Below are positions 38,239-59,343 of a stretch of DNA of 64,000 nt, one piece after another (the stretch's first letter is position 1; each line of letters starts with the position of its first letter). Both the position numbers and the translations under genes were made by a program. This DNA is from Albimonas marina. GTDB lineage: Bacteria; Pseudomonadota; Alphaproteobacteria; Rhodobacterales; Rhodobacteraceae. The stretch is taken from positions 558,001 through 622,000 of the forward strand of contig NZ_JARHUC010000003.1 of assembly GCF_029223255.1 (NCBI RefSeq), written 5' to 3'. A model generated the notes under the pieces. That model worked only from the letters and a program-made list of their open reading frames with translations, did not search any database and was not told the origin of the DNA.

Positions 38239-39570
38239 TCAGGCGAGCAGGGCCATCGGGTTCTCGAGGTTGGTCTTCACCGCCTCGAGGAACTGGGCGC
38301 CCAGCGCGCCGTCGATCACCCGGTGGTCGACCGAGAGGGTCACGGACATCACCGTGGCCACCTTGATCTCGCCGTCCGCTCCCACGACCGGCTTCTTCAC
38401 GCCCGCGCCGACCGCAAGGATCGAGCCGTGGGGCGGGTTGATCACCGCGTCGAAGTTCTCGATCCCGTACATCCCGAGGTTCGAGATCGCGAAGCTGCCG
38501 CCCTGGTATTCCTGCGGCTGCAGCTTGCGGTCGCGCGCCTTGCCGGCGAGCGTCTTCATCTCGGCCGAGATCGCCGAGAGCGACTTCGTGTCGGAGCCGC
38601 GCAGCACCGGCGTGATCAGGCCGCCGTCGATGGCCACTGCGACCGCCACGTCGGCGCGCGAGAACTTCAGGATCCGGTCGCCGGCCCAGACCGCGTTGCA
38701 GTCGGGAACCTGGATCAGGGCCGCCGCGCAGGCCTTGATGACGAAGTCGTTGACCGAGAGCTTCACGCCGCGCTTCTCGAGCGCGCCGTTCAGCTCTGCC
38801 CGGAACGCCATCAGCGCATCCAGCTCGATGTCCCGCCGCAGGTAGAAATGCGGGATCGTCGACTTCGCCTCGGTGAGGCGCGCGGCGATCGTCTTGCGCA
38901 TCCCGTCGAGCTTGACCTCCTCGAACTCCACGTCGCCGTAGAGCTTCTTCACGGCATCGGCGGAGGCCGGCTCGGCCTTGGCGACGGGAGCGACGGCGGC
39001 CGGGGCCTTGTCCTCGGCCTTCGCCGCGGGGGCGGCGGCCTCGGGCTTCGCGTTCTCGACGTCGGCCTTCACGATCCGGCCCTTCGGCCCGGACCCCTTC
39101 ACCTTCGTCAGGTCGAGCCCCTTCTCCTTCGCGATCCGCCGCGCGAGCGGGGAGGCGAAGATCCGCTCGCCGTCGGCGGTCGACGGCGCGGCGGGGGCAG
39201 GGGTCTCGGCCGCCTTCGGCTCAGGCGCGGCAGAGGCGGCGGAGGGCTTTTCGCCCTCGCTCTCGGCCGGGGCGGGCTTGGCCTCGGGCTTGGCGGAGGC
39301 GGCCTCGTCGACCGCCGAGGCGTCCTCGCCCTCCTCGAGCAGGACGGCGATGGGGGTGTTCACCTTCACCCCCTCCGTGCCCTCGGCGATCAGCAGCTTG
39401 CCGATCACGCCCTCGTCGACGGCCTCGAACTCCATCGTGGCCTTGTCGGTCTCGATCTCCGCGATCACGTCGCCGGAGCTGACCGTGTCGCCTTCCTTGA
39501 CCGTCCACTTGGCCAGCGTGCCCTCCTCCATCGTGGGGGACAGCGCGGGCATCAGGATCTGGATGGACAT
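38239..39570 (-). CDS. pdhC: Pyruvate dehydrogenase E2, dihydrolipoamide acetyltransferase
   Basis: Core subunit of the pyruvate dehydrogenase complex. The 443-residue protein has one N-terminal lipoyl domain with the lipoylated K43 ([11 protein letters not shown]), an Ala/Pro/Glu-rich linker, a peripheral subunit-binding domain ([29 protein letters not shown]), a second linker, and the catalytic domain with [11 protein letters not shown] near the end (H416 and D420). It is the last gene of pdhA-pdhB-pdhC, 12 nt after pdhB. Confidence 0.96.
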
Positions 39571-39582
39571 CTCCCTCCCCCC

Positions 39583-40995
39583 TCAGCGGTAGCAGACGGA
39601 CTTCACGGCCTCGACCACCTCGGCGGTGGTGACGAGGGCGTGTCGTTCCAGGTTGGCCGCGTAGGGCATCGGCACGTCCTTGCCGGTGCAGTTCAGGACC
39701 GGGGCGTCGAGGTAGTCGAACGCCTCCTTCATCAGCGTCGCCGAGATGTGGCTGCCGATGGAGGCGACGGGCCACCCCTCCTCGACCGTCACGCAACGGT
39801 TGGTCTTCATGACCGAGCGCACGACCGTGTCCGTGTCCATCGGGCGCAGGCTGCGCAGGTCGACGACCTCGGCCTCGATCCCCTCGCCCGCGAGCGCCTC
39901 GGCGGCCTCCAGCGCGTAGGTCATGCCGATGCCGAAGCTCACGATCGTCACGTCCGTGCCCTTGCGCCAGATCCGCGCCTTGCCCAGCGGCACGGTCAGA
40001 TCCTCGACCTCGGGCACGTCGAAGCTGCGGCCGTAGAGGATCTCGTTCTCCAGGAACACCACCGGGTTGGGGTCGCGGATCGCCGACTTCAGCAGGCCCT
40101 TGGCGTCGGCGGCCGAGTAGGGCTGCACGACCTTCAGGCCGGGGATCTGCGCATACCAGGCCGCGTAGTCCTGGCTGTGCTGGGCCCCCACGCGGGCCGC
40201 GGCGCCGTTGGGGCCGCGGAACACGATCGGGCAGCCCATCTGGCCGCCGGACATATACAACGTCTTGGCCGCCGAGTTGATGATCTGGTCGATCGCCTGC
40301 ATGGCGAAGTTGAAGGTCATGAACTCGACGATGGGACGCAGGCCGGCGAAGGCCGCGCCCACGCCCAGGCCGGCGAAGCCATGCTCGGTGATCGGGGTGT
40401 CGATCACCCGCTTGGCGCCGAACTCGTCCAGCAGGCCCTGGGTGATCTTGTAGGCGCCCTGGTACTCGGCCACCTCCTCGCCCATCACGAAGACGTCGCC
40501 GTCGGCGCGCATCTCCTCGGCCATCGCGTCGCGCAGGGCCTCGCGCACCGTCTGCTTCTTCATCGGCGCGTCTTCGGGCCAGTCGAGCTCCAGCTCGGCC
40601 ATCGGCGCGCCGGGCTTGGCGGCGGCGGGGACGGTGGCGTGGGGCGCATCCTCCAGCGCCTTGGGCGCCTCGGGCGTGTCCGACGCCTCATCCTTCGGCT
40701 CGGTCTTCGCCGCGGGCGCCTCGGCGGCCCCTTCGGCGGCGGAGGCGTCCTCCCCCTCCTCCAGAAGCACCATGATGGGCGTATTGACCTTCACGCCCTC
40801 CGTGCCTTCCTCGATCAGGATCTTGCCGACGACGCCTTCGTCGACGGCCTCGAACTCCATCGTCGCCTTGTCGGTCTCGATCTCCGCGATCACGTCGCCG
40901 GAGGAGACCTTGTCCCCCTCCTTGACGTTCCACTTCGAGAGCGTCCCCTCCTCCATGGTGGGGGAGAGCGCGGGCATCAGGATCTGAATCGCCAT
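39583..40995 (-). CDS. pdhB: Pyruvate dehydrogenase E1 beta with N-terminal lipoyl domain
   Basis: E1 beta subunit of the complex, 470 residues. Residues 1-80 form a lipoyl domain nearly identical to the one in pdhC (modified K43 in [11 protein letters not shown]), joined by an Ala/Glu/Pro linker to the transketolase-like beta domain ([35 protein letters not shown] to the C-terminus). A lipoyl-bearing E1 beta is a known alphaproteobacterial arrangement. It lies 11 nt downstream of pdhA. Confidence 0.96.
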
Positions 40996-49895: not shown

Positions 49896-51337
49896 CCCAT
49901 CAGCCCACCACCCCCCGCTTCCGCGAGAACGTGCGCGCGGCGATGGCCGACGCGCCGCTGATGGAGCAGATGACCACCGCGCTCACCGGCTCGATGGCCC
50001 GTCGTGCCGGGGCCGCGGGGGCGGTGCCGGAGTTCGACCAGATCCGCGACGCCGGCCGCGACCTGAAGAACCACGTGCTCGAGCATCTCGACGTCTATCT
50101 CGAGACCTACGAGAAATCCGTGACCGACGCCGGCGGCCACGTGCACTGGGCCGAGACGGCGCAGGAGGCGCGCGAGATCATCCTCGAGATCTGCCGCAAG
50201 GCGGGGGCGAAGACGGTCAACAAGGGCAAGTCGATGATCTCGGAGGAGATCGGGCTCAACGACTACCTCGAAGAGAACGGGGTGAAGCCGGTCGAGACCG
50301 ATCTCGGCGAATACATCATCCAGCTCCGCAAGGAGACGCCCTCTCACATCATCGCCCCGGCGATGCACGTGAACGTCCCCCAGTGGCGCGAGGCGTTCCG
50401 GAAATTCCACCCGCACCTGCCCGAGGACCGGGACCTCGAGGGCCTCGACAAGCTGCTGCTGGAGGCCCGCGGCGAGCTGCGCCGCAAGTATTTCGAGGCC
50501 GAGGTCGGGATCACAGGCGCCAACATGCTGATCGCCGAGACCGGCCAGTCGGTGATCGTGACCAACGAGGGCAACGGGGACCTGTCGCAGTCGCTGGCCA
50601 AGGTCCACGTGGTCATCGCCTCGCTGGAGAAGATCGTGCCGACGCTGGAGGATGCGTCGACCGTGCTGCGCCTGCTGGCGCGCTCGGCCACGGGGCAGGA
50701 GATGTCGGTCTACACGACCTTCTCCTCCGGTCCCCGCCGGGCCGAGGATCCCGACGGGCCCGAGGAATACCACGTGGTGCTCCTCGACAACGGGCGCTCG
50801 GAGATGCTGGGCTCGGACTTCCAGGACATGCTGCGCTGCATCCGCTGCGGGGCCTGCATGAACCATTGCCCGGTCTACCGGGCGGTGGGGGGCCACGCCT
50901 ACGGCTGGGTCTATCCCGGCCCGATGGGCGCGGTGCTGACGCCGGCGCTGATCGGGGTGACGCAGGGCGGCAACCTGCCCAACGCCTCGACCTTCTGCGG
51001 GCGCTGCGAGGAAGTGTGCCCGATGCGCATCCCGCTGCCCAAGATGATGCGCCACTGGCGGGCGCGGGAGTTCGAGCGCAAGCTCTCGCCCAAGGGCGTG
51101 CGCAGGGGCCTGGGCGTCTGGGCCTGGGCGGCGCGTCGGCCGGGGCTCTACCGCGCGGGCGCCTCTCTGGCGGCGCGGGCGCTGCGGATGCTGGGGGCGG
51201 GCTCGATCCGCCGGCTGCCGATGGCGGGCGGGGCCTGGACCGCGACCCGCGACTTCCCCGCGCCCGAGGCCGGGGGGACCTTCATGGCCCGCTGGAACCC
51301 CGACGCCGAGGGTCGCCGCCGGGGGGGCGCGAAATGA
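49892..51337 (+). CDS. lutB: Lactate utilisation protein B, iron-sulfur subunit
   Basis: A 481-residue protein with an N-terminal LUD domain (KTVNKGKSMISEEIGLNDYLEENG, NMLIAETGQSVIVTNEGNGDLS) and a C-terminal ferredoxin-like part with two cysteine clusters: CIRCGACMNHCPVY and CGRCEEVCPMRIPLPKMMR. It is the electron-transfer core of the complex that oxidises L-lactate to pyruvate. It overlaps lutA and lutC by 4 nt on each side. Confidence 0.95.
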   Translation: MTHQPTTPRFRENVRAAMADAPLMEQMTTALTGSMARRAGAAGAVPEFDQIRDAGRDLKNHVLEHLDVYLETYEKSVTDAGGHVHWAETAQEAREIILEICRKAGAKTVNKGKSMISEEIGLNDYLEENGVKPVETDLGEYIIQLRKETPSHIIAPAMHVNVPQWREAFRKFHPHLPEDRDLEGLDKLLLEARGELRRKYFEAEVGITGANMLIAETGQSVIVTNEGNGDLSQSLAKVHVVIASLEKIVPTLEDASTVLRLLARSATGQEMSVYTTFSSGPRRAEDPDGPEEYHVVLLDNGRSEMLGSDFQDMLRCIRCGACMNHCPVYRAVGGHAYGWVYPGPMGAVLTPALIGVTQGGNLPNASTFCGRCEEVCPMRIPLPKMMRHWRAREFERKLSPKGVRRGLGVWAWAARRPGLYRAGASLAARALRMLGAGSIRRLPMAGGAWTATRDFPAPEAGGTFMARWNPDAEGRRRGGAK

Positions 51338-51996
51338 GCTCCCGGGTGCGCATCCTCGCCAACCTCCGCCGCCGGCTGGAGGAGGGGCGCCCGGCCGCCG
51401 AGCGGGCCGAGGGCGTGGCCGCCCGCCTGCGCCTCGCCGGCGCGCAGACCGCGCCGCGCCCCGCCGCCTCGCAGCTCGAGGGGGCCGAGGCGCTGGCCCG
51501 CTTCGAGGAGAAGCTGCGCGCGGTGGACGCGAGCGTCTCCCACGTCGCCTCCTTCGAGGCGTTGCCGGAGGCGCTGGCGAGCGAGCTGCGCGCGCGCAAC
51601 CTGCCGGCCGCGATCCGGATGGGCGAGGATGCCGAGCTCACGGGCCTCGACTGGTCGGGGCTGGAGGCGAGCCGCGGCCCGGGGCGGATCGAGGAGCCCG
51701 CCACTCTCTCCCGCGCGGTCTGCGGCGCGGCGGAGACGGGCACGGTGGCGCTGCGTTCGGGCCCCGAGAACCCGGTGACGCTGACCTTCCTGGGCGAGAC
51801 GCATTTCATCGTCCTGCGCCGCTCGGAGGTGGTCCCGGGCCTCGAGGAGCTGTGGGCCCGGGTGCGCCGCTCGGGCGCGCAGCCGCGCACGGTGAACCTG
51901 GTGACGGGCCCCAGCCGCTCGGCCGACATCGGCGGCGTCCTGCAGCTCGGCGCCCACGGCCCCGTCGCCGTCCACGTCTTCCTGGTCGACGCCTGA
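51334..51996 (+). CDS. lutC: Lactate utilisation protein C
   Basis: A 220-residue LUD-domain protein, the third subunit of the lactate oxidation complex. The signature LVTGPSRSADIGGVLQLGAHGPVAVHVFLVD ends the protein; TGTVALRSGPENPVTLTFLGETHFIVL is also typical. The usual GntR-type regulator and lactate permease are not adjacent. A long palindromic repeat begins right at its stop codon. Confidence 0.93.
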   Translation: MSSRVRILANLRRRLEEGRPAAERAEGVAARLRLAGAQTAPRPAASQLEGAEALARFEEKLRAVDASVSHVASFEALPEALASELRARNLPAAIRMGEDAELTGLDWSGLEASRGPGRIEEPATLSRAVCGAAETGTVALRSGPENPVTLTFLGETHFIVLRRSEVVPGLEELWARVRRSGAQPRTVNLVTGPSRSADIGGVLQLGAHGPVAVHVFLVDA

Positions 51997-52393
51997 AGCG
52001 CCGCGTCTCCCGTCGCGCCGGACGCAGCCTCCAGCCCGCGGCGCGCCCCACCCCCAACGCCCGGGGCAAAAGTCTCCTCCCTCGCAGACCGGGCGCCCAG
52101 GCGCGACGCCCGCACGGGTCGCGAAGCGCCTGTTCTCCGGAGCCGTCTCTCGCGGATGCCGACAAGAGCGAGTCGGGGGGAGGGGTCCAGGATCGCGAAG
52201 CGACCCCGCCTCTTGGCGGGGCTTGTCCTTGACCCCTCCCCCCGACTCGCTCAGGCATCGCAAGCGAGAGACGGATCCGGAGAACAGGCGCGGCCCTTGT
52301 TCTTTGGTGAGTCAGGAGCCCGCCGGAGGCCGCCGCACCCGCAAATCCGGGCGCGCCCGACCCCGCAGGCCCAAGCCCGCCCGCAGGGCGCCC
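51993..52393 (-). repeat. Nested palindromic repeat, copy 1 (about 400 bp, inverted relative to copy 2)
   Basis: The core (about 52124-52313) is an imperfect palindrome: a 22-bp arm 52166-52187 pairs with 52231-52252, an inner stem CCCCGCC/GGCGGGG closes the tip, and outer arms with CTCCGGA and CGTCTCTCGC flank it. In reverse complement it matches copy 2 almost base for base over the core, with only a few changes near the tip. Clear similarity continues on both sides, from the lutC stop to about 52393. It fills most of the 489-nt gap between lutC and the next gene; no transposase is associated. Confidence 0.88.
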
Positions 52394-52485
52394 ACGCGCC
52401 CCGCCGTCGCCGGGGCCTTGCCCGCTGCGCCGCCTTCGGGGCATCGTCTCGCGCGATCCCTCGCCCGCCCCGGAGCCCGCGCCCG

Positions 52486-53271
52486 ATGTCCCTCTCCCGC
52501 ATGTTCGCCCCCTCCGACCGCGCCCCGGCGCCGCGCGCCAGCGGTCCGGTGGACGTGGGCTGGCTGCTGACCGAGCCCGAGGCGGGCGTGGTGTTCTTCC
52601 CGCCGGAGCGGGTGCGCTCGGTCGAGATGAACCGGCGCCACGCCAAGTCCGCCTCGCGCTGCCCGGCGGTGATCAACCTCGAGAGCCGGTACTTCGTGAT
52701 CCGCTGCCCCTTCGACCTGGCGCTGCGGTTCGAGCGGGACAAGGACGGCCGCCCGGGCCTGCGCAACCTGATGGGCAACGCCAGCCCGGTGCGCCCCAAG
52801 AAGCTCAACAAGCACCTGCACGTGGTGGGCGAGGCGGAATGGCGCCATCCCGACCGGCCGACGGTGCAGATCAGCCTGCCGTACCTGTTCGTGGCCGACG
52901 AGCCGGTGTTCCTCACCCAGCTCTCGGCCTTCCTGCACTACCGCGCCGAGCCGCTGCCCGGCACCATCTTCGGCGGCCGTTTCCCGGTGCACGTCTGGCC
53001 GCGCCCGCTGATGTGGGCCTTCGAGTGGCACGACGTGACCAAGGACCTGGTGCTGCGCCGGGGCGAGCCCTGGTTCTACGTGCAATTCGAAACCGCCCCG
53101 CAGGAGCGCCCGGTGCGCCTGGTGGAGGCCGAGCACACCGAGGCGCTGAAGGCCTACGAGAAGCATGTCTCGGGGGCGGTGAACTACGTCAACCAGACCT
53201 TCTCGCTGTTCCAGCAGGCCGAGAAGGCGCGGCCCGAGCGGCTGCTGACCCCGGTCTCGCGCAAGGGCTGA
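52486..53271 (+). CDS. Protein of unknown function
   Basis: A 261-residue soluble-looking protein, not recognised. It has a Pro/Arg-rich start, then VDVGWLLTEPEAGVVFFPPERVRSVEMNRRHAKSASRCPAVINLESRYFVIRCPFDLALRFERDKDG, several Trp-rich strands (FPVHVWPRPLMWAFEWHDV, PWFYVQFETAPQ) and a helical end. There is no signal peptide or transmembrane segment. ATG 52486 follows GGAG at 10 nt; 52501 is an alternative. Codon use is normal for the genome, so the gene is likely real. With the following small gene it forms a pair enclosed by two inverted repeats of about 400 bp. Confidence 0.8.
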   Translation: MSLSRMFAPSDRAPAPRASGPVDVGWLLTEPEAGVVFFPPERVRSVEMNRRHAKSASRCPAVINLESRYFVIRCPFDLALRFERDKDGRPGLRNLMGNASPVRPKKLNKHLHVVGEAEWRHPDRPTVQISLPYLFVADEPVFLTQLSAFLHYRAEPLPGTIFGGRFPVHVWPRPLMWAFEWHDVTKDLVLRRGEPWFYVQFETAPQERPVRLVEAEHTEALKAYEKHVSGAVNYVNQTFSLFQQAEKARPERLLTPVSRKG

Positions 53272-53300
53272 CGCGGGGGCTGACGGGGGCGCGAAAGCGC

Positions 53301-53322
53301 TTGACCTCGACCATGGTCGAGG
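53301..53322 (+). promoter_or_regulatory. 18-bp perfect palindrome next to a TTGACC box
   Basis: CCTCGACCATGGTCGAGG (53305-53322) is a perfect palindrome that begins inside TTGACC (53301-53306), 87 nt before the next gene. A palindrome directly after a -35-like box resembles MerR/SoxR-family operators, but no convincing -10 box follows. It could also be a hairpin in the mRNA between the two genes. Confidence 0.35.
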
Positions 53323-53408
53323 ATGTCGGGTGGGCGACGACCGGCCGCGCGCGGCGGCCGGAGACCCGCATCCCGGCGCCCCCGCGCCGTCGCGCAGGAT
53401 GACCGACC

Positions 53409-53840
53409 ATGGCCCTGGACCTTCCCGATTTCGCCGAGGGCGGCGACGCCCAACTGGACGCCCCGCTCGACGCCCCCTTCGACGCGCTCTTCGAGGATGC
53501 GGCGCCGCGCCTGGCGCAGGCGCGCCTCGACCGGTTCGAGATGCCCGCGGCGGCGCGCGCCGAGTTCCTCGAAGCGGTGCGCGTCATCCACGCCGTCCTG
53601 CGCCGCCGACCCGGCTTCCTGCGCGACCTGCTGCTGGAGCGAACGCTGCCCGACGGGCGGGTGGAGATCGCCACGCTGGTGGAATGGGGGGCGACGGCCG
53701 ACCTCGCGGCGGCGAAGGTCGAGGCGGCGCGGGCGCAGGCGGCGGCGGGGATCGACCCGGCGGCGCTGATGGCGCGGCTGGGCGTGCAGGCGACGATCGC
53801 GAGCTTCGAGCCGGTGGAGGGGGGCGACGAGGGGCGCTGA
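53409..53840 (+). CDS. Small acidic protein of unknown function
   Basis: A 143-residue, Ala- and Asp/Glu-rich protein (MALDLPDFAEGGDAQLDAPLDAPFDALFED start; helical middle EFLEAVRVIHAVLRRRPGFLRDLLLERTLP), not recognised. Third-position GC bias supports this frame over the overlapping Arg-rich frames at 53323 and 53330. There is a weak binding site before the ATG. It lies 137 nt after the preceding unknown gene and ends 25 nt before repeat copy 2, so it may share that gene's transcript. Confidence 0.7.
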   Translation: MALDLPDFAEGGDAQLDAPLDAPFDALFEDAAPRLAQARLDRFEMPAAARAEFLEAVRVIHAVLRRRPGFLRDLLLERTLPDGRVEIATLVEWGATADLAAAKVEAARAQAAAGIDPAALMARLGVQATIASFEPVEGGDEGR

Positions 53841-53865
53841 TCCTCCGGCGGGCGGAGGGGGGCGG

Positions 53866-54268
53866 AGGCGCCCTGCGGGCGGGCTTGGGCCTGTGGGGTC
53901 GGGCGCGCCCGGATTTGCAGGTGTCGCTGCCTCCGGCGGGCTCCTGACTCACCAAAGAACAAGGGCCGCGCCTGTTCTCCGGATCCGTCTCTCGCTTGCG
54001 ATGCCTGAGCGAGTCGGGGGGAGGGGTCAAGGACAAGCCCCGCCAAAAGGCGGGGTCGCTTCGCGATCCCTGACCCCTCCCCCCGACTCGCTCTTGTCGG
54101 CATCCGCGAGAGACGGCTCCGGAGAACAGGCGCTTTGCGACCCGTGCGGCCGTCGCGCCGGGGCGCCCGGTCTGCAGGTGAGGGAGGCGGGGGCCACGGG
54201 AGATGGGGGTGGGGCGCGCCGCGGGCGGGGCGGTGCGTCCGGCGCAACGGGGGACGCGGCGCCTCAGG
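53866..54268 (+). repeat. Nested palindromic repeat, copy 2 (about 400 bp)
   Basis: The core (about 53945-54140) has a 23-bp perfect stem, 54007-54029 with 54071-54093, an inner tip CCCCGCC-AAAA-GGCGGGG, and outer arms of about 25 nt (CCTGTTCTCC... with ...GGAGAACAGG) with one mismatch. It occupies nearly all of the 434-nt space between the unknown gene ending at 53840 and the convergent metallopeptidase gene ending at 54275. It is the reverse complement of copy 1, so the two form large inverted repeats around 52394-53865. Confidence 0.88.
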
Positions 54269-54274
54269 CGGGCG

Positions 54275-55195
54275 TCAGGGCGCGCGGGCGAAGGTGTCGC
54301 AGGCGGCGATGGAGCCCTCGTTCCAGCCGCGGGCGAACCAGCTCTTGCGCTGCTGGGAGGTGCCGTGCTGGAAGCTCTCGGGGCGGACGCTGCGGCCGGC
54401 CTCGCGCTGGAGCGTGTCGTCGCCGATGCGCGAGGCGGCGTTCAGCGCCTCGTCCACGTCGCCCTCGTCGAGGCTGCCGAACTTCGCCTGCGCCTTCTGC
54501 GCCCAGACGCCGGCGAGGCAGTCGGCCATCAGCTCGACCTTCACCTGCACCGCGTTCGCCTCGGCCTGGCCGAGGCCCGCCTTCAGCCGCTGGGCGCGCT
54601 TGAGGACGCCGAGCTCGTTCTGCACGTGGTGGCCGACCTCGTGCGCGATCACGTAAGCCGCGGCGAAGTCGCCCCCCGCCCCGAGCCGCCGGTCGAGCGC
54701 GTCGAAGAAATCGGTGTCGAGATAGGCCTTCTCGTCGAGCGGGCAGTAGAACGGGCCGGAGGCGGCGCTCGCGCCCCCGCAGGCCGACTGCACCGCGCCC
54801 GAGAACAGCACCAGCTTCGGCGGCTCGTAGCGCCGGCCGAGCTCGTTGGAGAAGGCGTCGGCCCAGACCTCCTCGGTGTCCGCCAGCACCACCGAGGCGA
54901 ACTGGCCGCGGTCGCGGTCCTCCTGCGTCAGGGGGCCGGTGGAGGCGCCGGGCGCGCCGCCCTCGTACTGCGACCCCGCGAACAGCGAGACGCCCACGAA
55001 GATCAGGAAGATCACCCAGCCGGCCTTGGAGCGGGGCAGGGAGACGCCACGCCCCGAGCCGGAGCCGGGAAAGCCGCCCGGGAACCCGCCGGGCCGGCGC
55101 CCGAAGCCGCCGGGCAGGCCGAAGCCCCCGCGCGAGGGGGTCTGGCCCCGCCGGTCCTCGACGTTCGAGCTTCCGCGCCGTCCGCGCCACTGCAT
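54275..55195 (-). CDS. Neutral zinc metallopeptidase (YpfJ family)
   Basis: A 306-residue membrane-anchored metallopeptidase. It starts with a Gly/Arg/Pro-rich cytoplasmic tail (about 55 residues), has one transmembrane helix (about 59-74), then the catalytic domain with H185-E-V-G-H189 (YVIAHEVGHHVQNELG) and the family segments FCPLDEKAYLD-like FYCPLDEKAYLDTDFF and ELMADCLAGVWA, whose Glu may be the third ligand. It is probably periplasmic; no substrate is known. The start at 55195 is chosen because upstream sequence is antisense to pyc. Confidence 0.9.
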   Translation of the reverse strand: MQWRGRRGSSNVEDRRGQTPSRGGFGLPGGFGRRPGGFPGGFPGSGSGRGVSLPRSKAGWVIFLIFVGVSLFAGSQYEGGAPGASTGPLTQEDRDRGQFASVVLADTEEVWADAFSNELGRRYEPPKLVLFSGAVQSACGGASAASGPFYCPLDEKAYLDTDFFDALDRRLGAGGDFAAAYVIAHEVGHHVQNELGVLKRAQRLKAGLGQAEANAVQVKVELMADCLAGVWAQKAQAKFGSLDEGDVDEALNAASRIGDDTLQREAGRSVRPESFQHGTSQQRKSWFARGWNEGSIAACDTFARAP

Positions 55196-55405
55196 GGCGG
55201 TCTCCTCCTCGCCGCACGCCCCTCGCAGCCTAGATAGCGCGGGGAAGCCGCGGGTCCTCCCCCCGTCGGCGGCGGCGGGTCGCTTTCCCCGCGGGCGGCG
55301 GCGGGTCGCTTTCGCTGCGGCGCAGCGTAGGCCCTTGCCCCCGGTCAGACGCCTGTGGTTTCTATGATCGCACCTGTCCGCGCCCAAGCCGGAGCACGTC
55401 CCCCG

Positions 55406-58400
55406 ATGAAAGACTTCAAGAAGATCCTGGTCGCCAACCGGTCCGAGATCGCGATCCGCGTGATGCGGGCCGCCAACGAGCTGGGCAAGGCCACGGTCGC
55501 CGTCTACGCCGAGGAGGACAAGCTGGGCCTGCACCGCTTCAAGGCGGACGAGGCCTATCGCATCGGCGAGGGGCTGGGCCCGGTGGGCGCCTATCTCTCG
55601 ATCGACGAGATGATCCGGGTGGCGAAGCTGTCGGGCGCCGACGCGATCCATCCCGGCTACGGCCTGCTGTCGGAGAACCCGGCCCTGGTCGACGCCTGCG
55701 ACGCGGCCGGCATCGCCTTCATCGGCCCGACCGCGCGCGCCATGCGGATGCTGGGCGACAAGGCGAGCGCGCGCAACGCCGCCATCGCCGCGGGCGTGCC
55801 CGTGGTGCCCGCGACCGAGGTGCTGGGCGAGGACATGAAGGCCGTGCGCGCCATGGCCGACAAGGTCGGCTATCCGCTGATGCTGAAGGCCTCCTGGGGC
55901 GGCGGCGGGCGCGGCATGCGCCCGATCTTCGGCCCCGAGGAGCTGGAGGAGAAGGTGCGCGCCGGCCGGCGCGAAGCCGAGGCCGCCTTCGGCAACGGCG
56001 AGGGCTATCTCGAGCGGCTGATCCAGCGCGCGCGCCATGTCGAGGTGCAGGTGCTGGGCGACAGCCACGGCTCGATCCTGCACCTGTTCGAGCGCGACTG
56101 CACCGTGCAGCGGCGCAACCAGAAGGTCGTCGAGCGCGCGCCCGCCCCGTACCTGAGCGAAGAGCAGCGGGCCATGGTCTGCGAGCTGGCCCTGCGCATC
56201 GCGCGCCACGCCGGCTACGTGAACGCGGGAACCGTCGAGTTCCTGATGGACATGGACACGCAGGAGTTCTTCTTCATCGAGGTAAACCCGCGCATCCAGG
56301 TCGAGCATACCGTGACCGAGGAGGTCACCGGCATCGACCTGGTGAAGGCCCAGATCCGCATCGCCGAAGGCGCGACGGTGGCCGAGGCGACGGGCGTGCC
56401 CGGCCAGCACGCGGTGCAGCTGAACGGTCACGCCCTGCAGTGCCGCGTGACCACCGAGGACCCCACCAACAGCTTCATCCCCGACTACGGCCGCATCACC
56501 GCCTATCGCGGGGCCACGGGCTTCGGCATCCGGCTCGACGGGGGCACGGCCTATTCGGGGGCGGTGATCACCCGCTACTACGACTCGCTGCTCGAGAAGG
56601 TGACGGCCTGGGCGCCGCGGCCCGACGAGGCGATCAAGCGGCTGGACCGGGCGCTGCGCGAGTTCCGCATCCGCGGCGTGGCCACCAACATCGCCTTCGT
56701 CGAGAACCTGCTGAAGCACCCCAAGTTCCTCGACAGCTCCTACACCACCAAGTTCATCGACGAGACGCCGGAGCTGTTCGACTTTCCCGCCCGCCAGGAC
56801 CGCGCGACCAAGCTGCTGACCTGGGTGGCGGACGTGACGGTGAACGGGCATCCCGACACCGCCGGGCGGCCCAGGCCCCCCGCCCACGCCCGCAAGCCCA
56901 CGCCGCCCAAGGCGGTCGAGGGCGGCCCCGTGCCCGGCACGCGCGACCTGCTCGAGGCGCAGGGGCCCAAGGCCGTGGCGGACTGGATGCTGGGCGAGAC
57001 GCGCCTGCTGGTCACCGACACCACCATGCGCGACGGCCACCAGAGCCTGCTCGCCACCCGCATGCGCAGCTACGACATGATCCGCGCGGCGGAGGCCTAT
57101 TCGAAGAACCTGCCGGGGCTGTTCTCGGTCGAGTGCTGGGGGGGCGCGACCTTCGACGTCGCCTACCGGTTCCTCGACGAATGCCCCTGGCAGCGGCTGC
57201 GCGACCTGCGCGCGCGGATGCCCAACCTGATGACCCAGATGCTGCTGCGCGGGGCCAACGGGGTGGGGTATACGAATTATCCCGACAACGTGGTGCAGCG
57301 CTTCGTGCACCAGGCGGCGACCTCGGGCGTGGACGTGTTCCGGGTTTTCGACTCGCTCAACTGGGTCGAGAACATGCGCGTCGCGATGGACGCGGTGCTG
57401 GAGACGGGCAAGGTCCTGGAGGGGACCATCTGCTACACCGGCGACATCAACGACCCCGACCGCGCCAAGTACGACCTGAAGTACTACGTCGGCATGGCCA
57501 AGGAGCTTCAGGCCGCCGGCGTCCACGTGCTGGGGCTGAAAGACATGGCGGGGCTGCTGAAGCCCGCCGCCGCCGGGCCGCTGGTCCGCGCGCTGAAGGA
57601 GGAGACGGGGCTGCCCGTCCACTTCCACACCCACGACACCTCGGGCATCTCGGCGGCCACCGTGCTGGCGGCCGCGGCGGCGGGGGTCGACGCGGTGGAC
57701 GCGGCGATGGACTCGTTCTCCGGCCAGACCTCGCAGCCCTGCCTCGGCTCGATCGTCGAGGCGCTGCGCCATACCGAGCGCGACACGCTGCTGGAGCCCG
57801 CGCGCATCCGCGAGATGTCGGACTACTGGGAGCTGGTGCGCCTGCAGTACGCGGCCTTCGAGAGCGAGCTGAAGGCCGGCGCCTCGGAGGTCTACCTCCA
57901 CGAGATGCCAGGTGGGCAGTTCACCAACCTCAAGGCGCAGGCGCGCTCGATGGGGCTGGACGAGCGCTGGCACGAGGTCGCCAAGATGTATGCCGACGTC
58001 AACCGGATGTTCGGCGACATCGTGAAGGTGACGCCGTCCTCGAAAGTGGTGGGGGACATGGCGCTGACCATGGTCTCGGCCGGGCTGAGCGTGGACCAGG
58101 TGATGGACCCGAAGGTGGACGTGAGCTTCCCCGAGTCGGTGATCGGGATGCTGCGCGGCGACCTGGGCCAGCCGCCGGGGGGCTTCCCGAAGAAGCTGGT
58201 GAAGAAGGCGCTGAAGGGCGAGACGCCCGACGAGACGCGGCCCGGCGCGCGCATCCCGCCGGCGGATTTCGAGAAGATCCGCAAACAGGTCTCCGAGGAG
58301 CTCGACGGCGAGGAGATCGACGACGAGGACCTGTGCGGATACCTGATGTATCCCAAGGTCTTCACCGACTACATGAAGCGCCACGCCGACTTCGGCCCGG

Positions 58401-58852
58401 TGCGCGTGTTGCCCACGCCGACCTTCTTCTACGGCATGGAGGAGGGCGAGCAGATCGAGGTCGAGATGGAGCAGGGCAAGACCCTGCAGGTCGGCCTCTC
58501 GGCGATGACCGACACCGCCGAGGACGGCACGGTGAAGGTGTTCTTCGAGCTCAACGGCCAGCAGCGCATGATCACGGTGAAGAACCGCAAGGTCGCGGCG
58601 TCGGTCGAGGCGCGGCCGAAGGCCGACGCCGCCAACGCGGCCCATGTCGCGGCGCCGATGCCGGGCGTGGTGGCGTCCATCGCCGTCGAGGCCGGCAAGA
58701 AGGTGAAGGCCGGCGACATGCTGCTGACCATCGAGGCGATGAAGATGGAGACCGCGCTGCACGCCGAGCGGGAGGGGACCGTGAAGGCCGTCCACGTCTC
58801 GGCGGGGGCGCAGGTGGACGCCAAGGACCTGCTGGTCGAATACGAGAGCTGA
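55406..58852 (+). CDS. pyc: Pyruvate carboxylase
   Basis: Biotin enzyme that makes oxaloacetate from pyruvate and bicarbonate, the anaplerotic entry to the TCA cycle. The 1148-residue protein has the usual order: biotin carboxylase (about 1-460, ILVANRSEIAIRVMRAANE start, HVEVQVLGD, EVNPRIQVEHTVTEE), carboxyltransferase (about 530-830, TTMRDGHQSLLATRMR, FHTHDTSG), allosteric linker and biotin carrier domain with the biotinylated K1113 in EAMKMET. Upstream in-frame starts at 55355 and 55364 exist; 55406 has GGAG upstream and begins at the fold. Confidence 0.96.
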   Translation: MKDFKKILVANRSEIAIRVMRAANELGKATVAVYAEEDKLGLHRFKADEAYRIGEGLGPVGAYLSIDEMIRVAKLSGADAIHPGYGLLSENPALVDACDAAGIAFIGPTARAMRMLGDKASARNAAIAAGVPVVPATEVLGEDMKAVRAMADKVGYPLMLKASWGGGGRGMRPIFGPEELEEKVRAGRREAEAAFGNGEGYLERLIQRARHVEVQVLGDSHGSILHLFERDCTVQRRNQKVVERAPAPYLSEEQRAMVCELALRIARHAGYVNAGTVEFLMDMDTQEFFFIEVNPRIQVEHTVTEEVTGIDLVKAQIRIAEGATVAEATGVPGQHAVQLNGHALQCRVTTEDPTNSFIPDYGRITAYRGATGFGIRLDGGTAYSGAVITRYYDSLLEKVTAWAPRPDEAIKRLDRALREFRIRGVATNIAFVENLLKHPKFLDSSYTTKFIDETPELFDFPARQDRATKLLTWVADVTVNGHPDTAGRPRPPAHARKPTPPKAVEGGPVPGTRDLLEAQGPKAVADWMLGETRLLVTDTTMRDGHQSLLATRMRSYDMIRAAEAYSKNLPGLFSVECWGGATFDVAYRFLDECPWQRLRDLRARMPNLMTQMLLRGANGVGYTNYPDNVVQRFVHQAATSGVDVFRVFDSLNWVENMRVAMDAVLETGKVLEGTICYTGDINDPDRAKYDLKYYVGMAKELQAAGVHVLGLKDMAGLLKPAAAGPLVRALKEETGLPVHFHTHDTSGISAATVLAAAAAGVDAVDAAMDSFSGQTSQPCLGSIVEALRHTERDTLLEPARIREMSDYWELVRLQYAAFESELKAGASEVYLHEMPGGQFTNLKAQARSMGLDERWHEVAKMYADVNRMFGDIVKVTPSSKVVGDMALTMVSAGLSVDQVMDPKVDVSFPESVIGMLRGDLGQPPGGFPKKLVKKALKGETPDETRPGARIPPADFEKIRKQVSEELDGEEIDDEDLCGYLMYPKVFTDYMKRHADFGPVRVLPTPTFFYGMEEGEQIEVEMEQGKTLQVGLSAMTDTAEDGTVKVFFELNGQQRMITVKNRKVAASVEARPKADAANAAHVAAPMPGVVASIAVEAGKKVKAGDMLLTIEAMKMETALHAEREGTVKAVHVSAGAQVDAKDLLVEYES

Positions 58853-59343
58853 CGGGCGACCCGCCGCGGGGGGGGGCGCCGCGTCGGGGGGCCCGCCCGT
58901 GGGGGGCGTTCGGATCGCGGCGCGGGGCGGGTGCTGCGCATTCGGCGAGGGCCTCGCGAGGCGGGGCTCGCTCGGCTTGCGCGCTGCGCGCGGGGGCGCT
59001 TCGGGAACCCACCAAAGAACAGGGCCGCGCCTGTCCTTCGGATCCGTCCGTCGCTGAAGATGCCTGAGCGAGTCGGGGGGAGGGGTCAAGGACAAGCCCC
59101 GCGCGGGGCGCGGGGTCGCTTCGCGATCCCTGACCCCTCCCCCCGACTCGCTCTTCACGGCATCAGCGACGGACGGCTCCGAAGAACAGGCGCTCTCGGC
59201 GGAGCCTGCGGCGCGCGGGGGACTGGGGCGGGCGGCGGCGCCGGGGGGGCTTTGCGGAGCGCCTGGGGCTGGGCGGGGGCGGCGCGGGGCGCGGGGGGGC
59301 TTCGGCTCTGGCGCCGGGGGGCGGTTCGGGGTATCGGGCTGGC
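58853..59343. other. Intergenic region between pyc and the rsmC-like gene
   Basis: 491 nt. The middle is repeat copy 3; the flanks (58853-59008 and 59197-59343) are G-rich low-complexity sequence with no gene and no obvious promoter. Confidence 0.6.
59009..59196 (+). repeat. Nested palindromic repeat, copy 3 (core only, about 190 bp)
   Basis: Same architecture as copies 1 and 2: a perfect 23-bp stem 59066-59088 with 59131-59153, and outer arms ending CTGTCC.../...GAACAG. Compared with copy 2, several base pairs are changed on both arms at once: CTCCGG to CTTCGG and CGTCTCTCGC to CGTCCGTCGC, each with the matching change opposite, and the tip CCCCGCC/GGCGGGG to CCCCGCG/CGCGGGG. The longer flanks of copies 1 and 2 are absent here, which defines the core unit as about 59009-59196. 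Confidence 0.87.

What the first reader, a model, noticed from the sequence alone, without database searches (positions are those of the whole stretch)
51993..59196. Three copies of a long nested palindrome with compensating base changes
Seen in sequence: at about 52124-52313 (minus orientation), 53945-54140 and 59009-59196 the same ~190-nt unit occurs. It folds into a hairpin with a 22-23-bp inner stem, a short tip stem and a 25-28-nt outer stem. Between copy 2 and copy 3, at least three pairs in the outer stem and one in the tip stem change on both arms together (CTCCGG to CTTCGG, CGTCTCTCGC to CGTCCGTCGC, CCCCGCC to CCCCGCG, each matched opposite), while one-sided changes are few. That is what selection for a folded RNA or DNA form would give. 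All three copies lie between genes, each after the 3' end of at least one gene. Inference: a structured RNA, terminator or stabiliser, or a REP/MITE-like palindrome mobilised in trans.
Basis: partly seen in the sequence, partly recalled or inferred. Interest (0 to 1): 0.75.

Follow-up and report, generated by a model that had tools for sequence, protein, structure and literature searches.

The report
Self-overwriting hairpin repeats at gene ends
A long folded DNA hairpin is scattered about 137 times through this bacterium's genome, nearly always next to the ends of genes; its copies keep their shape but appear to keep overwriting each other's inner sequence, so the matched changes in its arms cannot simply be read as proof of a useful RNA.

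Summary
The nested hairpin occurs in 137 distinct copies in its own genome and 18 in 800 kb of a congener. A second congener and all 28 other relatives searched gave weak hits or none. No copy of 193 overlaps a called gene; 181 face at least one gene 3' end. Pairing is near-perfect, with many both-arm changes.

At sites shared by both species, DNA outside the element matches its ortholog best in 31 and 24 of 35 cases, the inner hairpin in 2 of 35. Eleven shared sites carry one identical inner arm in one species and eleven different arms in the other. Ectopic conversion between copies is the best account, so much of the covariation is inherited in blocks. Leftover wobbles favour one strand 208:11, and that strand carries a terminator-like tip.

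It works like a REPIN (a mobile REP-doublet hairpin), but no Y1/RAYT transposase or reverse transcriptase was found. Its apical junction recurs in few copies in other genera.

The parts
51997..52392 (+). Copy 1, whole element in the orientation of the wobble-supported strand; begins directly after the stop codon of the LUD-domain gene (51334-51996)
   Evidence: (ends); present at the same site in G001; no matching sequence at the syntenic place of G002
52126..52291 (+). Copy 1 core hairpin (outer arms 52126-52153 / 52264-52291)
   Evidence: I7
52166..52187 (+). Copy 1 inner-stem 5' arm (partner 52231-52252): variable, co-changing part
52186..52232 (+). Copy 1 apical three-way junction, reverse complement of the TCAAGG.CAAGC(hairpin)GGTCGC..GCGA.CCTTGA type
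52204..52221 (+). Copy 1 tip hairpin, followed by CTTGTCCTTG: terminator-like on the wobble-supported strand
   Evidence: same in copy 2, 54055-54038 minus; copy 3, 59115-59097 minus
52294..52311 (+). Copy 1 tail: near direct repeat of the 5' outer arm, so it can pair with the 3' outer arm instead; conserved TTGGTGAG
53867..54263 (-). Copy 2, whole element, between convergent genes; absent at the orthologous site of G001 (48 nt between the genes there against 434 nt here)
53968..54133 (-). Copy 2 core hairpin
   Evidence: (I8)
59027..59193 (-). Copy 3 core hairpin, between the pyruvate carboxylase gene and the methyltransferase gene; present at the same site in G001, not recognisable in G002
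   Evidence: (I5, I14)
59009..59026 (-). Copy 3 tail (linker CCACCAAAGAACAGGG on the + strand)

Best explanation
This is a REPIN-like interspersed hairpin family of one Rhodobacterales-type genus (unnamed here). It is non-coding, about 186 nt in its core and 340-420 nt with its mosaic arms, and it sits in intergenic space at gene 3' ends in either orientation. Shown: copy number, position, shape, one-strand wobble polarity, species-specific presence at some sites, and loss of most orthology inside the element at conserved sites. Inferred: (1) the family expanded before G000 and G001 split, after or apart from G002, as a non-autonomous hairpin copied in trans by an enzyme not identified here; (2) it survives where it breaks neither genes nor promoters; (3) the copies then exchange sequence with each other by ectopic gene conversion, most intensely at the inner stem and tip, plausibly because the extruded hairpin is cut or stalls replication there and is repaired from another copy; (4) because each repair tract spans the apex, both arms change together, giving near-perfect covariation without stepwise compensation; (5) the conserved outer stem, tail and apical junction are kept by selection on a single-stranded fold (ssDNA or an RNA of one strand). 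An effect on transcription ends or mRNA decay is possible but untested.
For: 137 distinct copies; 0 of 193 overlap a called gene by more than 30 nt; 76 convergent, 104 tandem, 12 divergent, 1 undetermined against 126/464/174 in background gaps of 60 nt or more (chi-square p about 2e-19). Sites compared with G001: 41, element in both 35, absent in 6; in 800 kb of contiguous G001 DNA, 11 of 14 shared. Outside the element the ortholog is the best match in 31/35 and 24/35; inside 2-4/35; inner stem plus tip mean percentile 0.515, other inside segments 0.33-0.44. One inner arm at 11 shared G000 sites faces 11 different arms in G001; conversely one G001 arm at 5 sites faces 5 different G000 arms. 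Inner stem 127 both-arm against 15 one-arm changes. Wobble polarity 208:11, or 69:10 without the two richest columns, same sign in all gene contexts. Arm motifs also occur away from any core, and one G001 site holds the arms without the hairpin. REPINs likewise have conserved ends, a spacer with common compensatory changes and hairpin folding (PMC3116915, passages).
Against: No transposase was identified: Y1_Tnp, RVT_1 and the TnpB zinc-ribbon family were absent. No target-site duplication was recognised by eye, and ends are fuzzy, with two 5' lengths. Most sites are shared by the two species, so recent movement is slight. Some orthology remains inside the element: percentiles of 0.33-0.44 outside the inner stem, and the linker/arm triple GCG is shared by 4 of 5 orthologs (Fisher p = 0.0005), so conversion is not wholesale. 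Rapid in-situ evolution in both species could also erase orthology, though it does not explain identical arms at 11 sites. The three-way pairing of tail and both outer arms and the terminator-like tip on the wobble-supported strand would suit a functional RNA.
Confidence: 0.56

Rival explanations
1. A domesticated structured RNA: the element is transcribed as a 3'-UTR and acts as a terminator, RNase barrier or bistable switch (3' outer arm pairing either with the 5' arm or with the tail); compensatory changes are selected.
For: 3'-end position; one-strand wobble polarity; on that same strand the tip hairpin plus CTTGTCCTTG scans as terminator-like in all three window copies (4 sites against 0.8 expected, 2 against 0.1); triple covariation of tail and both outer arms, A-T-A in 168 and G-C-G in 28 of 202 copies, with 6 others; outer-stem changes mostly C:G to T:A, with C.A as the commonest one-sided state; a related hairpin sits between the same two genes in three other genera.
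Against: Orientation to the tandem neighbour is nearly indifferent, 60 sense and 44 antisense (p = 0.14), and the polarity does not follow the local transcript. The T-stretch is short and broken, and none follows the whole hairpin. No sigma-70-type promoter-like site in the stretches scanned. No Rfam family reached its gathering score. Only a weak hit in congener G002.
Confidence: 0.25
2. Plain selection for pairing, without conversion: arms evolve quickly and independently at each site, and only paired states survive.
For: 47 and 33 distinct inner 5' arms in the two species with 4152 of 4246 inner cells Watson-Crick; orthologous and random distances are almost equal, as at saturation.
Against: Identical inner arms at 11 shared sites against 11 different ones in the sister species; 90 of 127 inner changes are C:G/G:C flips, which wobble steps cannot make; few one-arm states.
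Confidence: 0.11
3. Template switching within each hairpin copies one arm onto the other during replication, giving paired changes mutationally.
For: Described mechanism that can create and maintain hairpins, with multibase compensatory changes (PMC8794818, abstract and start of introduction); the inner stem nearest the apex is the best paired, while outer-stem mismatches persist (columns 33 and 41).
Against: It cannot spread one inner arm to many unlinked sites. It may still supply new arms, alongside conversion.
Confidence: 0.05
4. An ordinary MITE of a DDE transposon with terminal inverted repeats.
For: High copy number; element ends carry GGCGCC-type motifs; window copy 2 is species-specific.
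Against: No target duplication seen; ends variable and mosaic; neighbouring genes show no recurrent transposase: 242 of 273 neighbour proteins are singletons and the largest recurrent cluster, 5 members, starts like an ABC-transporter ATPase (read by eye).
Confidence: 0.03

Closest known systems
REPIN / REP elements (Pseudomonas, E. coli)
   Same: High copy number, extragenic, hairpin of conserved outer parts with a variable spacer in which compensatory changes are common (PMC3116915, passages); persists for long times (PMC8049555, passages)
   Different: No Y1/RAYT gene found in this genome; core 186 nt against a 71-bp distance between conserved 16-mers in GI REPINs; apical three-way junction and third complementary tail; contents turned over at fixed sites
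ERIC / IRU and other enterobacterial RU elements
   Same: Intergenic repeat units of 103-168 bp, described as MITE-like (PMC2759123, abstract start in listing)
   Different: Different taxon and size; not compared by alignment here
BIME / RIME-type mosaic elements
   Same: Modules (arms, hairpin) occur together or apart in intergenic space
   Different: Comparison recalled, not tested
Integron attC sites
   Same: Single-strand fold, conserved outer part, variable apex, 3' of genes (recalled)
   Different: Dispersed rather than arrayed; no integron integrase above cut-off

Membership tests
REP/REPIN | Many extragenic copies forming a hairpin with conserved ends and variable spacer | tested here: met
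REP/REPIN | Y1 tyrosine transposase (RAYT) in the genome | tested here: not met
   PF01797: 0 matches in a 99.64% complete genome; controls rang in 5 of 14
REP/REPIN | GTAG or CGTC tag next to the palindrome | tested here: inconclusive
   no such tag conserved at the palindrome edge on visual reading of the alignments; no formal test made
MITE | Terminal inverted repeats with target-site duplication | tested here: not met
   both end motifs found in 30 of 193 copies; no target duplication recognised by eye
Curated RNA family (Rfam 15) | Score above a family's gathering threshold | tested here: not met
   0 hits in the window; for copy 1 with a lax threshold all 25 hits, mostly miRNA hairpins, lie below their cut-offs
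Intrinsic terminator | GC hairpin followed by a T-run | tested here: inconclusive
   tip hairpin plus CTTGTCCTTG matches the scan's loose rule in all 3 window copies on the wobble-supported strand; no T-run after the whole hairpin; termination not tested
Integron attC | Integron integrase in the genome | tested here: not met
   no match over cut-off, best 80.5 bits against 265; matches below cut-off also rang in all 14 controls
Retroelement-mobilised RNA | Reverse transcriptase in the genome | tested here: not met
   PF00078: 0 matches; controls rang in 3 of 14
IS91-like Y2 transposition | Y2 transposase | tested here: inconclusive
   0 matches, but no control genome rang either

The most novel reading that the evidence does not exclude
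A transposase-free hairpin population that maintains itself by breaking: the extruded apex is cut or stalls replication and is repaired from another copy, so the family homogenises and reshuffles its centre at fixed sites and thereby generates textbook covariation by recombination alone.
Probability: 0.27. Interest if true: 0.78.

Novelty: new variant of a known kind. Interest (0 to 1): 0.55.

Why it matters
Paired changes in both arms are widely taken as strong evidence for a functional RNA. Here most inner-stem changes are paired, yet orthologous inner stems are hardly more alike than random ones, and identical arms recur at unlinked old sites. If that is recombination, repeated hairpins can imitate covariation and RNA-discovery pipelines need an orthology control. 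It also offers a REPIN-like population without its usual transposase, in which the question of how such repeats persist can be tested.

Tried and rejected
RAYT, reverse transcriptase, TnpB-like and integron integrase searches in the own genome: none found or none over cut-off; the Y2 search is uninformative. Target-site duplications and exact ends: none recognised by eye. Recurrent neighbour gene: none that looks like a transposase from its first residues. Plasmid and phage records: no match to copy 2 in either collection. Replication-strand orientation: copy orientation differs between contigs more than chance (8 of 20000 simulations), but neighbouring copies are not co-oriented beyond chance (68 of 124; 4937 of 20000 shuffles as high) and GC skew is too weak to tell; dropped. 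Literature on such an element in Rhodobacterales: listings seen for 7 of 7, 20 of 98 and 12 of 114 papers showed none by title and abstract start; terms for Rhodobacterales had 0 occurrences in PMC3733652 and PMC12306157 had one alphaproteobacterial passage on another organism. Searches were background listings.

Limits of the counts. Gene calls come from my own codon-model caller, checked only by eye on the window. The 40 G000 pieces used for background were chosen mostly between copies (2 cores in them), so they are not a random sample; the G001 pieces are two contiguous runs of 400 kb. The other G001 loci were chosen around its copies, so 35 of 41 shared sites is biased; 11 of 14 is not. 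The tip loop (columns 95-115) was left out of the wobble count because it is misaligned by gaps. Inner-stem pairing is near-perfect, not perfect: 117 of 193 copies have all 22 pairs Watson-Crick. In one search a regular expression mislabelled two shared sites as empty; one search corrected this. My note says 10 different arms; the rows show 11. The apical model R2 was built from 14 sequences, 4 of them from G002, G003 and G006 (one search confirms the origin), so its best hits there are partly by construction.

I had written that no T-run follows the hairpin; scans made for the check show a terminator-like tip, so I moved the best explanation from 0.60 to 0.56, the RNA rival from 0.20 to 0.25 and plain selection from 0.12 to 0.11.
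Full report
What is there. The three copies are real. Outward to inward each consists of an outer arm of 28-31 nt, an asymmetric bulge, a 22-bp inner stem and an apex. The apex is a three-way junction: TCAAGGACAAGCC, a tip hairpin, GGTCGC-loop-GCGATCCTTGA. On one side lies a conserved tail (CTCACCAAAGAACAGGG, or its complement). Beyond the 190-nt unit, copies carry arms (5' CAGGCGCC..., 3' ...CCCGCCCGCAGGGCGCC), so full units reach about 340-420 nt. Copies 1 and 2 form a 418-nt inverted repeat around two genes.

Copy number and range. A covariance model of the core (30 copies) found 150 scored matches in the own genome, its cap; 137 distinct copies remain after removing reverse echoes and overlaps. 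Congener G001 gave 85 matches, the cap; 65 distinct copies lie in the G001 DNA held, and 800 kb taken without regard to copies holds 18. Congener G002 gave one hit at E = 6e-4. Of the 28 other relatives, three gave weak hits (best E = 0.0019) and 25 none. A model of the apex alone, which includes sequences from G002, G003 and G006, matched 19 of 120 family genomes, own included, at E up to 0.001. Seven of the genomes not used in the model reached E below 1e-8. In ten chosen genomes it gave 1-12 hits each, 5 of them in G002. By eye, several of those hits sit on a different long hairpin preceded by a second one. In three genera (G051, G089, G112) one hit lies between the same two orthologous genes; I read these as aldehyde dehydrogenase and choline-dehydrogenase-like, and did not test that by a family search.

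Position. With a codon-model gene caller, 0 of 193 copies overlap a gene by more than 30 nt: 76 convergent, 60 tandem sense, 44 tandem antisense, 12 divergent, 1 undetermined; 181 face at least one 3' end. Background gaps of at least 60 nt: 126 convergent, 464 tandem, 174 divergent. The element follows gene 3' ends and avoids divergent promoter regions, with little regard to orientation.

Structure and strand. Over 30 copies, 99.2% of cells pair and 13 pairs change on both sides. Over 193 copies some inner pairs show four Watson-Crick types; column pair 79/138, for example, has GC 91, CG 73, AT 22, TA 2. Leftover wobbles are polar: A.C on the linker strand, which is G.U on the other strand, in 208 cells, against G.U on the linker strand in 11. 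Without columns 33 and 75 it is 69 to 10. The sign is the same for copies in every gene context. Among one-sided outer-stem differences between orthologs I count 21 to 3 (types; binomial p = 0.0003). Cells count copies, not independent events. One strand, not the duplex, therefore seems to be the folded form under constraint, and it is not simply the transcript of the neighbouring gene. On that strand the tip hairpin followed by CTTGTCCTTG scans as terminator-like in all three window copies, more often than in shuffles; no sigma-70-type promoter-like site was found in the two stretches scanned. The tail is a third copy of the outer-arm sequence: columns 9/35/182 read A-T-A in 168 and G-C-G in 28 of 202 copies. 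The 3' outer arm can therefore pair with either of two partners. In window copy 1 the minimum-energy fold prefers the main hairpin.

Orthology test. Of 41 G000 sites located in G001, 35 hold the element in both species and 6 do not; in contiguous G001 DNA it is 11 of 14. Window copies 1 and 3 are shared and copy 2 is absent from G001. None of the three is recognisable in G002. At the 35 shared sites, the DNA outside the element finds its ortholog as best match in 31 and 24 cases on the two sides. Inside, it does so in only 2-4; the inner stem plus tip has a mean percentile of 0.515, that is, no memory of the site, and the other inside segments 0.33-0.44, a weak one. Inner arm GAGCGACTCGCCCGCCGGGGTC stands at 11 of these sites (25 copies genome-wide) while the 11 G001 orthologs have 11 different arms. 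In the other direction, one G001 arm at 5 sites faces 5 different G000 arms. The same arm occurs in both species at only 1 of 35 sites, and tips reassort among inner arms. The outer stem keeps some memory: the G-C-G state is shared by 4 of 5 orthologs.

Mode of change. In inner stems of orthologs there are 127 both-arm Watson-Crick changes and 15 one-arm changes, and 90 of the 127 are C:G/G:C flips. In outer stems there are 36 both-arm Watson-Crick changes, 6 both-arm changes that are not Watson-Crick in both species, and 37 one-arm changes; 25 of the 36 are C:G/T:A. The outer stem thus looks like ordinary compensatory evolution through wobbles, while the inner stem looks like block replacement. 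Ectopic gene conversion centred on the apex explains the shared arms, the near-perfect pairing and the loss of orthology. Template switching (PMC8794818, abstract and start of introduction read) may add to it. Cutting of extruded palindromes by SbcCD-type nucleases is my inference from general knowledge; one search was read as a listing only.

Mosaic nature. One G001 site keeps the 5' arm and downstream parts but lacks the hairpin, with the junction near the direct repeat formed by outer arm and tail. This could be a deletion between direct repeats or an ancestral state. The arm motif CCCGCCCGCAGGGCGCC occurs 17 times near a core and 10 times elsewhere in 800 kb of G001, with 2 in the backwards control; the other arm motif is less clear there, 1 near, 7 elsewhere, 3 in the control.

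What it is. It works like a REPIN. It is not filed as one, because the defining RAYT was searched for and not found. No reverse transcriptase, integron integrase or TnpB-like protein was found above cut-off either. Function at transcription ends is plausible from position and from the terminator-like tip but untested. Genes around the window copies by Pfam: LUD-domain protein, two proteins without a family, zinc metallopeptidase, pyruvate carboxylase, methyltransferase.

Noticed in passing
window 51990-52406 and 53853-54270: Copies 1 and 2 make a long inverted repeat around two genes (52486-53271, 53409-53840), which could allow inversion of that segment.
   Followed up: partly
L230, L237, L257 (G051, G089, G112): A related hairpin with the same apical junction lies between the same two orthologous genes in three genera, with one R2 hit per genome in two of them; a candidate conserved cis-element.
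   Followed up: partly
own genome contigs C12, C17, C22: Element orientation is uneven between contigs (C17 15:4, C12 5:17, C22 7:0; 8 of 20000 simulations as uneven); unexplained.
   Followed up: partly
window 39298-39570 and 40723-40995: Direct repeat of 273 nt, 85% identical.
   Followed up: no
L104 and L110: Two copies share 621 nt at 92%, well beyond the element, together with a similar downstream gene.
   Followed up: no
L270, L303, L314, L322 (JAMOPI010000028.1): Several matches of a TCAAGG...CCTTGA palindrome on one contig of a Desulfofervidaceae MAG; perhaps an unrelated repeat family.
   Followed up: no
G000:C1:126743-127204 (L425) beside the copy at C1:127318: A tyrosine-recombinase-like gene next to one copy; only one such case was noticed.
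   Followed up: no
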